Source: Scedosporium boydii
Taxonomy: Eukaryota; Ascomycota; Sordariomycetes; Microascales; Microascaceae
Direction: 5' to 3'
Assembly: GCA_002221725.1 (NCBI GenBank)
Contig: NJFT01000049.1
Span: 124,001 to 188,000 of the forward strand
DNA length: 64,000 bases
The notes under the pieces were generated by a model. It was not told the origin of the DNA. It did no database searches and was given only the letters and a program-made list of their open reading frames with translations. A program made the translations under genes and the position numbers. Position 1 is the stretch's first letter. Each line of letters starts with the position of its first letter. Below, in pieces: positions 26,957 to 64,000 of the stretch.

Positions 26957-29900
26957 CTATCGACGCGACTCGAACTTGGCGCTAAGCCCACCGGCCCCAG
27001 CAACTCCCTGCACCGTGGCGTCCTGCGACGTCAACAGGTAGTCAAAGCCGAGCTGTTTGATGTGGCCGATCCAGCGGAGCCCAGGCATGGTCTCACTTCC
27101 TCCGTTGCGAGAGCGGTGCTGTTCAATAGCGTCGTGGAGTTCGACGACGTTGACGACGGTGGTGCTCTCAATGTGTGAGAAGCGGACTAGGCCTCTGTCA
27201 TTGTCATCGGTATTGGCAACAGTGTCGAAGACCGAGTCCAAGAGCCAACTCGACGCCTTCGATGCCGGCATCATATCAATGCGGCCCGTCCAGCCAGACA
27301 TCTCCGGGAATACTCCAGTAACGTCGACAAAGCGGACGAATTCGTCGAGAATCGCTGGCGACGTGGCTGTTGCACTCTTCATGGAAGGGAGGAAGCGGTA
27401 GATGGTGGAAGGCACGCCCAAGGCCTCGGCGGAGCGTTCAAGGATACGCTCGCTCGCCCACCGTGTTGCAACATAGCCGTCACTGCCATCAGCAGGGGGT
27501 ACGTTGGCGCGCGCGGATGCTGGTGGGGTGGTAATCTCGACATCCTCGCGAGGTAGCACGCCCATGGTGGAAATGTAGTGGATGTGGGCGCGTCGGGGCG
27601 CGGCAAGCTTGACAATCTCGCTTGTGCCCTGGACGTTAGTATGGCGCAGGACGTGATAGTTGTCCCAGAAGGAGCGTGCCGCGCCAAAGTGGATGATCAC
27701 GTCGACTGAGTTAGCCAAGTCTCTGAACACGGCCTCGGGTAGCCCGAGGAGCGGCGCCGAGATGTCGCCAACGTGGGTGACAATCTTAGACGAGTTAGAG
27801 GAGATGAGCTCAAGCTTGGAAAGGTTGCGGACGGCGACGGCGTGGATCGTTCCCACGGCCGGGTTGGCGATGAGCTGTGGGAGGATATATTTAGCGAGGA
27901 AGCCTGTGGCACCAGTAACCAGGACAGTCTTCTTGCCGTCCGAAGGCGGAGCTGCGGCGATGCTACTCTGCTGAAGGAAGCTAGGCAAAGTGGGTGGCTT
28001 CGTTTCGTGGTCCCAATCGATTACCGTCACGCTGGCGCTCTCCTCGATCTTGCGGGCCATCTCGCCCAGCTTGTTAGCTTGAAGAAGATCCACCAGGCGG
28101 ACGGTGACGTTGAAGGCGTCCCGGATGCGCGATTGCAGCCGGATCGCTAGCAGCGAGTTACCACCGACGAGGAAGAAGCTGGTCGACGGGCGAATGTCGA
28201 AGCCCAGCTCCTTGTTGTTGAGTACGTCTTGCCATACGGTCTTGAGGCGCACCATGGTTTCTGTCAGATCCTCGTTGCTGCCATCGCCCTGTTCCTGGGA
28301 ATTGCGGGCTCCGGAAAGCTGTGGTAGAGGTAACTCTTTCAGCGCCTTGCGGTCCGTCTTGGAGTGGTTGGTCAGCGGAAGTCTATCGAGCGGGATGGCC
28401 ACCACAGGCACCATGTACTGAGGGATCGGAAGCCGGCTGAGGAGACCCGCTAGATAGGCCTCGGTGTTGTCTGTGTTTTCGTAGCCCGGTGCAAATACGA
28501 CGTGGGCGACTAGGAAGTCTGGGTCACCCTCGCGTAGAGTAACAACGGCCTCCTTAAGGGCTCCCTCGGATGTGGCGACGATGTTACTCTCGATATCACT
28601 GAGCTCGATACGTAGACCGCGTATCTTGACCTGGGTGTCACCAGCCATGCGGGAGTGGAAAACCAAGGCGCCATCGTCGCGGAGGTGGCAGAAATCACCG
28701 GTGCGGTACATCCGCGTCCAGCCGTTCGCCACGGCCTGCCTGACCTTAGCTGCGAAGGGGTCCGGGACGAAGTGCTCGTCTGTCAGCTCATCATTCTTGA
28801 GGTAGCCCAGGGACACGCCGGCGCCGCCGATACAGAGCTCACCCGGCATTCCGGCGGGCAAGGGCCGGAGCTGCTCGTCCACGATGTAGGCATAGTAATT
28901 GGGGAGCGAGAAGCCACATGGGATGCGGCCATTTTCCTCCTCCATGGCGGCTGTGTTGCGGTAGTCAAGTTCCATCTTAGTCGAGGAGATGGAGATCTCT
29001 GTCGGACCGTACGAGTTGTGAAGGCGCAGCTGCGAGAGGCCCAACTTGGCAAACTCTGTAGTTACGGCGACAGGCATAGGTTCACCTCCACCAAATGCGG
29101 CACGCCATCTGGTCGCCTGCCGGAGGTTGTCGTTGCCATACTGAAGCCAGAGCGAGTACTCGGCCGGAGTAGCCTTTGTGTACGTGATAGACTCCTCCTT
29201 GACGATCCGCGTCACCTCGATCGGGTCACCTCGCTTGCTCCAGGGAACAACGTACACCATACCTCCATTGACAAGGCCAGTGTAGATCTGGTCGGAGGAG
29301 TGATTGAACGTGAAGGCACTCTGCTGGAGGGTGCGCTCGGCGCCTAGCTTCCATGTCTTGGTATAGCCCTCGATCTCGTTGCGGAGGCCGGCGTGCGTGA
29401 CAACGATGCCCTTGGGCGCTCCAGTTGAGCCGCTCGTGTAGAGGATGGCCGCGGGCGAATCTGGATTGGAAATGTTGAGAACAGGGGCTGATGCCTTCGA
29501 TGCGAGGCCCTCAACATCGATGACGATAGCGGTATCGGGCACGTTGAGCTCCTTCACATCGCCCCGGGTTGTAGAGTCCACCACAATGGCAGCCGGCTCG
29601 CAGTCGATGACGACGGCTGCTAGACGCGGGAGTGGGTTTCGGAGGTCGAGCGGCACATAGACACCGCCCACTCGCATGATGGCGAGCATAGAACAGACCC
29701 AGTCAGCCGAGGCAGTCTGGAAGACAGGTACTCGGTCGCCAGGACTGACTCCCGCTTTTTGCAGCGCCTCAGCGATAGCCTCGATGCGGTTAATTAAATC
29801 CGAGTAGGTGAGAGAATGTCCGAGGCCATCCTTGACGGCGACGGATTTGCCCTGGTTCCTCTGCGCTACTTCGTCAATCCGGAGGGGGAGAGTAGGCGCC

Positions 29901-63408: not shown

Positions 63409-64000
63409 ATGGCCGACGAGATTCAGCTCCCCCTTATCGACTTCGGTCCCTACATTAACCCCCAAGCGCCTGGCGACAGGGAGAGAGTCGTTGCTGAGGT
63501 TCGGGAAGCCTCCGCTCAGTATGGCTTCTTCCAGGTCAAGAACCACGGTGTGCCGATGGTCGCACAAAAGGCTCTTCTCCAGAGCCTGGATAACTTCTTC
63601 AGCAAGCCCAAGGAGGAGAAAATGAAGCTTTCTTTCTTGGAGAGCCCCGGCCGTCGAGGCTACGAGTGCTCCGGCATGAGCCTTCGGGAGGGAGATGCTT
63701 TGCCTGACTCGAAAGAGGTAAGTCATAGCTTTATATAGACATATACAATGATGTTTACCCACAATCAATCGCACGTCCCTCCCCATCCATCATCGTGTCC
63801 ACTTATAGGTATTAATTACAAAAAGGCCTTCTACATCGGGCGAGAGGATCCCGTCGTGGAGCCCCCGGGCTTCCACTGTCCCAACGTCTGGCCCGACATG
63901 CCCGAGGAAGACTTCCACGGTCCCGTCTGGAACTACTACCAGGAGACTGGTAAGCTCGGCCGCACTATCTGGGAGATTCTTCTCCAGGCCCTGGGCTACT
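63409..64000 (+). CDS. Fe(II)/2-oxoglutarate-dependent oxygenase, 5' part
   Basis: N-terminal part of a non-heme iron oxygenase of the isopenicillin-N-synthase-like superfamily; the gene runs off the window. Exon 1 is 63409-63717 and exon 2 starts at 63826 after a 108-nt intron whose acceptor (AAAAG|GCC) is chosen because it restores the family reading DSKEAFYIGREDP. Visible features of the N-terminal DIOX_N domain are LPLIDFGPYI, YGFFQVKNHGVP and FFSKPKEEKMKL, then GYECSGMSLREGD. The iron-binding HxD...H triad lies beyond the window, so activity cannot be judged. Its position next to the CYP505 gene suggests it is another tailoring enzyme (hydroxylation, desaturation or ring formation), but this is inference. 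Confidence 0.88.

What the first reader, a model, noticed from the sequence alone, without database searches (positions are those of the whole stretch)
26957..64000. PKS-NRPS cluster with an unfamiliar set of tailoring enzymes
A hybrid synthase, AflR-like regulator, Gfo/Idh oxidoreductase, BBE-like oxidase, FAD monooxygenase, trans-ER, CYP505 P450-reductase fusion and a 2OG oxygenase lie within 37 kb. Known PKS-NRPS families such as cytochalasans, tenellin-type pyridones and decalin tetramates usually show a Diels-Alderase-like gene, a hydrolase or several stand-alone P450s. Here a single self-sufficient CYP505 plus a 2OG oxygenase is present instead. I cannot match this combination to a cluster I know, so the product may be new.
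Basis: partly seen in the sequence, partly recalled or inferred. Interest (0 to 1): 0.75.

Follow-up and report, generated by a model that had tools for sequence, protein, structure and literature searches.

The report
Scedosporium gene cluster for acyl-tetronate metabolites
A stretch of a mould's genome holds the genes for a small-molecule factory that most likely joins a fatty chain to malic acid to make a tetronate; nearly the same set of enzyme types was described in an Aspergillus in 2025, so the kind is known although the exact compound may be new.

Summary
A 4,083-aa PKS-NRPS (26957-39375, minus strand) is followed by a Zn2Cys6 regulator, a Gfo/Idh oxidoreductase, a BBE-like oxidase, an FAD monooxygenase, a LovC-type trans-ER, a P450-reductase fusion and a 2OG oxygenase running past the window end. 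The genome is a Scedosporium relative (synthase 94% identical to S. apiospermum). The combination is not unfamiliar: the tho cluster of Aspergillus flavipes (talactones, tetronates; PMC12843353) lists nearly the same enzyme types, including a P450/reductase fusion. The 2OG enzyme's best solved relative is TraH, a tetronate decarboxylase; a 64%-identical 2OG stretch precedes a 59%-identical synthase in one Phlyctema gene model. BBE relatives share contigs with related synthases in 21 of 119 cases. The adenylation domain has Asn in place of Asp235 and Lys at 278, which would fit malate. Best reading: a malate-derived acyltetronate cluster, a new member of a known kind; malate and product are inferred, and no known tetronate synthase could be aligned. 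Wider lead: 102 of 129 synthases examined share Asn235/Lys278, with at least five Asn/Asp switches on a KS-AT tree.

The parts
26957..39375 (-). PKS-NRPS synthase, 3 exons (39375-38733, 38641-31883, 31806-26957), 4,083 aa
   Evidence: 93.8% identical over 4,081 aligned positions to S. apiospermum P0001
29282..29314 (-). A-domain A4 motif FTFNHSSDQIY (residues 3299-3309): Asn where Asp235 is expected; code read by alignment N-H-D-K-A-G-S-I-S-K
27458..27475 (-). Terminal R/D-domain motif YVATRW: Arg where the Lys of Y-x-x-x-K is expected
40636..42351 (-). Zn2Cys6 transcription regulator, 571-aa open frame (introns not excluded)
44239..45746 (-). Gfo/Idh/MocA oxidoreductase, 3-exon model, 411 aa
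47001..48739 (-). BBE-like FAD oxidase (PF01565), 2-exon model, 543 aa
   Evidence: relatives on the same contigs as related synthases
49533..51059 (+). FAD monooxygenase (PF01494), 4-exon model, 405 aa
51264..53670 (-). Anoctamin gene, not biosynthetic, interrupts the set; 5' end approximate
55370..55764 (-). Zinc-finger-like ORF, weak (best E 0.0015, below cut-off)
56648..57832 (-). trans-acting enoyl reductase, 2-exon model, 369 aa, LovC type
58776..62466 (+). P450 - P450 reductase fusion, 4-exon model, 1,139 aa
63409..64000 (+). TraH-like 2OG oxygenase, exon 1 63409-63717, exon 2 from about 63826 to about 64470 (beyond the window), 317 aa

Best explanation
A malate-type acyltetronate biosynthetic cluster. 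Inferred mechanism: the PKS half, helped by the trans-ER because no ER domain was detected in the synthase, builds a partly reduced, C-methylated acyl chain. The A domain loads malate (alpha-hydroxyl near Asn235, second carboxylate on Lys278). The C domain forms an ester with the malate hydroxyl, and the terminal R-like (Dieckmann) domain closes and releases a 3-acyl-5-carboxymethyl tetronate. The P450 fusion then most likely hydroxylates the acyl chain, as TraB does. The TraH-like 2OG enzyme oxidatively decarboxylates or desaturates the 5-carboxymethyl arm. The BBE oxidase, FAD monooxygenase and Gfo/Idh enzyme complete the oxidation pattern under the Zn2Cys6 regulator. Shown: genes, domains, motifs, homology, contig linkage of the BBE family, one gene model joining a related 2OG to a related synthase. 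Inferred: malate, ester bond, tetronate, and the role and order of every tailoring enzyme.
For: Domain order equals that reported for ThoE, except that Pfam calls no ER0 here. Nearly the same enzyme types as tho. 2OG: best PDB match TraH, 1.5e-79, ahead of TropC, 3.7e-60. By my reading of that alignment against residues named in passages of PMC13083874, the HxD...H iron motif, R280, Y195, K191, D112, K114, F286 and H288 are kept; Y214 is Phe and Q99 is Ser, both reported for the TraH/ThnC clade. One Phlyctema gene model runs 2OG - MFS transporter - PKS-NRPS; its 2OG part is 64% identical to ours (157/245) and its synthase 59%. BBE relatives: 21 of 119 listed hits with a contig length share it with a listed synthase; five pairs have locus tags one to three apart. 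trans-ER is LovC type. CaaA is reported to activate malic acid, form an ester and cyclise by Dieckmann reaction (PMC5381763 passage). Asn235/Lys278 is in 102 of 129 synthases, ours included.
Against: I could not align ThoE, ThnA, TraA or CaaA; none is named among the best 120 hits. One search, made with an A. niger Asn-type synthase to find CaaA and TraA by name, did not find them, so Asn-type = malate is unproven. In the tho study, co-expressing thoACDGHI with thoEB gave no further compounds, so the roles of the tailoring genes are open. An anoctamin and a zinc-finger-like ORF separate the two blocks. No SDR or transporter was found among the ORFs scanned between 1 kb and the 2OG gene; the only SDR seen is 17 kb to the right. 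BBE relatives also go with 6 Asp-type synthases of the 21, so the BBE does not point to malate. The lid loop is 4 residues shorter than in TraH. The Phlyctema evidence is one automatic gene model.
Confidence: 0.77

Rival explanations
1. An aspartate-type lactam cluster like those of phyllostictines and curvupallides: the A domain loads an amino acid and the release step gives a five-membered lactam (that these use aspartate is recalled).
For: P. cirsii synthase P0073 is 56% identical, and its FAD oxidoreductase, with the next accession number, is a listed BBE relative; Lys278 and Asp239 are shared with that group.
Against: Our code has Asn-His at 235-236; P0073, P0118 and P0120 have Asp-Phe. 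Our terminal domain has Y-x-x-x-R; 27 of 27 Asp-type have Y-x-x-x-K, but so do 23 of 99 readable Asn-type. The 2OG enzyme points to tetronates.
Confidence: 0.12
2. The right-hand genes are a separate set: the real cluster ends at the FAD monooxygenase and uses another trans-ER of the genome.
For: 5.6 kb with an anoctamin and a zinc-finger-like ORF lie between the blocks. The genome holds other LovC-like enzymes, the best 44% identical, and other P450s 42-44% identical to the fusion's P450 part in long open frames.
Against: A relative of the 2OG gene shares a gene model with a related synthase in Phlyctema; the right block supplies the ER, P450 fusion and 2OG types listed for tho.
Confidence: 0.07
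3. Reductive release: the terminal domain is a true thioester reductase that frees an aldehyde, as in cytochalasan pathways.
For: The domain matches PF07993 and keeps its Rossmann motif and the Ser/Thr and Tyr positions. PsoA, whose domain has Y-x-x-x-K, is its best PDB relative.
Against: The active-site Lys is Arg, as in 76 of 99 readable Asn-type synthases; ThoE of the same architecture is annotated with a Dieckmann cyclase and gives tetronates.
Confidence: 0.04

Closest known systems
tho cluster, Aspergillus flavipes LY1-5 (talactones A-J; PMC12843353, parts 1-2 of 5 and passages read)
   Same: PKS-NRPS, trans-ER, bifunctional P450/reductase, 2OG oxygenase, two FAD enzymes, oxidoreductase, regulator (by type)
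   Different: tho also has an SDR; here an anoctamin gene interrupts the set; sequence identity and gene order not compared
thn cluster, Trichoderma harzianum T-22 (trihazones; known to me only as cited in papers read, original not read)
   Same: tetronates from a PKS-NRPS; ThnC is a TraH homologue acting on a tetronate
   Different: ThnA not found by name; T. guizhouense P0038 (59% identical, Asn-type) is only my guess for its relative
tra cluster, Penicillium crustosum (terrestric acid; passages of PMC8648635, PMC8948627, PMC13083874)
   Same: PKS-NRPS plus trans-ER, P450 chain hydroxylase, TraH 2OG decarboxylase, flavin oxidoreductase
   Different: TraB is described in the passages as a cytochrome P450, no reductase fusion mentioned; TraA not among the listed hits
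caa cluster, Aspergillus niger (carlosic acid, agglomerin F; passage of PMC5381763)
   Same: PKS-NRPS said to activate malic acid, trans-ER, P450
   Different: no hit named caaA seen; A. niger P0108 is Asn-type but not shown to be CaaA
Phyllostictine (P. cirsii) and curvupallide (C. pallescens) synthases
   Same: 56% and 47% identical synthases; the P. cirsii FAD oxidoreductase is related to the BBE
   Different: Asp235-type code and Y-x-x-x-K terminal domain

Membership tests
Fungal malate-type acyltetronate PKS-NRPS clusters (tho/thn/tra/caa) | KS-AT-DH-MT-KR-ACP-C-A-T-R/D synthase lacking a working ER | tested here: met
   no ER domain called by Pfam
Fungal malate-type acyltetronate PKS-NRPS clusters (tho/thn/tra/caa) | trans-acting enoyl reductase in the cluster | tested here: met
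   LovC-type by PDB search; it lies 17 kb from the synthase, beyond the anoctamin
Fungal malate-type acyltetronate PKS-NRPS clusters (tho/thn/tra/caa) | A domain activates malate | not testable with these tools
   only the code N-H-D-K-A-G-S-I-S-K is shown; no proven malate-activating domain was aligned
Fungal malate-type acyltetronate PKS-NRPS clusters (tho/thn/tra/caa) | TraH/ThnC-type 2OG oxygenase | tested here: met
   best PDB match and residues; no tree was built, so the clade is not tested
Fungal malate-type acyltetronate PKS-NRPS clusters (tho/thn/tra/caa) | Sequence relationship to ThoE, ThnA, TraA or CaaA | tested here: inconclusive
   searches list none by name among their best 120
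Fungal malate-type acyltetronate PKS-NRPS clusters (tho/thn/tra/caa) | Tetronate product | not testable with these tools
   needs expression and chemistry
Asp-type lactam synthases (phyllostictine, curvupallide) | Asp235-Phe236 A-domain code | tested here: not met
   Asn-His here; P0073, P0118, P0120 have Asp-Phe
Cytochalasan clusters | Diels-Alderase and alpha/beta-hydrolase genes | tested here: inconclusive
   none among the ORFs scanned; ORFs not scanned could hide one
P450-reductase fusion (CYP505 type) | P450 with FxxGxRxC motif joined to flavodoxin, FAD and NAD domains in one chain | tested here: met
   FGDGLRACIG and domains; subfamily name not tested

The most novel reading that the evidence does not exclude
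The Asn235/Lys278 code marks a large, mostly uncharacterised class of malate-activating tetronate synthases across moulds and lichen fungi (102 of 129 synthases examined). The switch between an amino acid and a hydroxy acid at this pocket has occurred at least five times on one synthase backbone, often together with a Lys-to-Arg change in the release domain. The Scedosporium cluster would make a new, further oxidised tetronate of this class.
Probability: 0.5. Interest if true: 0.6.

Novelty: new member of a known kind. Interest (0 to 1): 0.38.

Why it matters
It gives a testable product class to an unassigned cluster in a genus that infects weakened patients; the three library searches named in the report listed no tetronate cluster for it. 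If the Asn235/Lys278 code does mean malate, tetronate clusters could be told from tetramate clusters by reading one residue, and about a hundred synthases would gain a predicted building block.

Tried and rejected
Considered and dropped: tyroscherin as product (a recalled Pseudallescheria compound; the search listed no paper on its biosynthesis by title or abstract start). Boydine cluster of S. apiospermum (passages of PMC12881047 describe another core NRPS). AflR domain in the regulator (not found). P0113 as proof that the BBE is adjacent: its fused FAD domain is only 35% identical over 88 aa. A. niger P0108 as CaaA: not confirmed. (PF07976) was a wrong family choice and is not used. The composition profile added nothing. 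No structure was predicted.

Limits: only the best 120 of 1,099, 558 and 1,634 matches are listed. GrsA numbering of code positions is recalled; only position 235 was seen aligned to solved NRPS domains. BBE linkage rests on equal contig lengths plus species names; one of the 21 (P0134/P0017) bears different genus names. Two of 129 sequences were dropped before the KS-AT tree for short coverage. Gene models are mine, without transcripts. The original papers on thn and caa and the first tra papers were not read; the papers cited were seen as passages, PMC12843353 also as parts 1-2 of 5.

Full report
What is there. The synthase reads as one intact 4,083-aa protein after removal of two short predicted introns (GTAAGT...CTATAG and GTAAAA...CTACAG). 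Pfam calls KS, AT, DH, MT, KR, two carrier domains, C, A and a terminal NAD-binding domain, but no ER; the 20 motif patterns tried, some written from this sequence, all gave a hit. Two things were missed: an apparently intact anoctamin gene with a zinc-finger-like ORF between the FAD monooxygenase and the trans-ER, and the end of the 2OG gene outside the window. Anoctamin has a second locus elsewhere in the genome. Among ORFs scanned left of 26.9 kb are a kinase, a SET protein, a weak AIG1-like GTPase, a fungal rhodopsin-like protein and an FAD enzyme 20 kb away; among those right of the 2OG gene are an AhpC/TSA-like protein, a DUF7704 protein, an FMN-binding protein and, 17 kb away, an SDR. 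I take the cluster as 26957 to about 64470 with a non-biosynthetic stretch of about 5.6 kb inside.

Organism. The closest synthase is from Scedosporium apiospermum, 3,829 of 4,081 aligned positions identical (93.8%). The genome has 42.9 Mb in 442 contigs.

What the tailoring genes say. The 2OG enzyme's best solved relative is TraH of the terrestric acid pathway (1.5e-79), ahead of TropC (3.7e-60). From passages of PMC13083874, TraH oxidatively decarboxylates the tetronate crustosic acid. By my reading of the alignment, the iron, 2OG and substrate residues named there are kept except Y214 (Phe) and Q99 (Ser), both of which that paper reports in the TraH/ThnC clade; the lid loop is 4 residues shorter. 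The genome's next best relative is 33% identical. In Phlyctema vagabunda a 4,832-aa gene model runs 2OG - MFS transporter - PKS-NRPS; its 2OG part is 64% identical to ours. This is one automatic gene model, but it puts the three in line. The trans-ER is LovC type. The P450 part of the fusion has two better relatives elsewhere in the genome, 42-44% identical, in open frames of 729 and 892 aa; whether these are fusions was not checked.

The BBE oxidase is the best-linked gene. Of 120 listed relatives, 119 have a contig length; 21 share it with one of the 118 listed synthases that have one, and five pairs have locus tags one to three apart (AJ80_03306/03303, Q9171_001625/001624, Q9213_000744/000743, N7493_000846/000845, MFIFM68171_04785/04784). 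Of the 21 synthases 15 are Asn-type and 6 Asp-type, so the BBE goes with the backbone and not with the Asn branch alone. The Gfo/Idh gene, the FAD monooxygenase, the trans-ER, the P450 fusion and the regulator were not tested this way; they are placed by position and by type in tho.

The building block. The A4 motif FTFNHSSDQI puts Asn against the Asp of FSFD/YIFD in LgrA domains. Over 129 sequences (128, plus ours) position 235 is Asn in 102 and Asp in 27; all 102 Asn-type have Lys at 278; 93 of 129 have our exact code. Asp235 holds the alpha-amino group in known A domains, and Lys278 occurs in aspartate codes (both recalled). An Asn with the Lys kept would fit malate. CaaA of A. niger is reported to load malic acid, form an ester and cyclise to a tetronate (PMC5381763 passage). 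In the terminal domain the Y-x-x-x-K motif is Y-x-x-x-R in 76 and Y-x-x-x-K in 23 of 99 readable Asn-type synthases, and Y-x-x-x-K in 27 of 27 Asp-type.

An independent look. On a KS-AT tree of 127 sequences (two of 129 dropped for short coverage; the A domain is not part of it), Asn/Asp at 235 needs at least 5 changes, also after collapsing nodes with support under 0.9; 200 label shuffles gave a mean of 24.8 and a minimum of 21. So the trait follows the tree but has switched more than once, or A domains were exchanged.

Known counterparts. PMC12843353 describes the tho cluster with nearly the same enzyme types and ten tetronates from synthase plus trans-ER; its other genes gave no extra product in A. 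nidulans. ThoE is reported 57.9% identical to ThnA. Tra genes are described in passages of PMC8648635 and PMC8948627. I could not align these synthases myself, and a search meant to find TraA and CaaA by name failed. This is the weakest point of the malate reading.

Literature on the genus. Searches for Scedosporium with PKS-NRPS (11 papers), with words beginning 'tetron' (1 paper, an actinomycete review) and with polyketide synthase, gene clusters and antiSMASH (12 papers) listed no Scedosporium tetronate cluster by title or abstract start; passages were read in two papers that treat S. apiospermum.

Verdict. An ordinary kind of cluster not yet assigned in this genus as far as those searches show: most likely a malate-derived acyltetronate pathway with a split gene set. 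The Asn235/Lys278 class is the part worth following.

Noticed in passing
synthases: Asn/Asp at A-domain position 235 changes at least five times on a KS-AT tree and tends to go with Arg/Lys in the terminal domain.
   Followed up: partly
window 51264-53670: Anoctamin gene inside the supposed cluster; its apparent in-frame stop is the end of a predicted 63-base intron. A second anoctamin locus lies on C34.
   Followed up: yes
G000 C21, C34 and C193: LovC-like reductases lie within about 1-12 kb of other KS matches on the same contigs, perhaps further PKS or PKS-NRPS clusters.
   Followed up: no
P0100 and P0112: Synthase gene models with longer N-termini and a PF27599 match, perhaps fusions with a neighbouring gene.
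   Followed up: no
window 5360-6798: An FAD-binding oxidoreductase 20 kb left of the synthase, with kinase and SET genes between.
   Followed up: no
P0245-P0248: A small group of related synthases with the different code D-I-E-Q-A-A-S-C-G-K.
   Followed up: no
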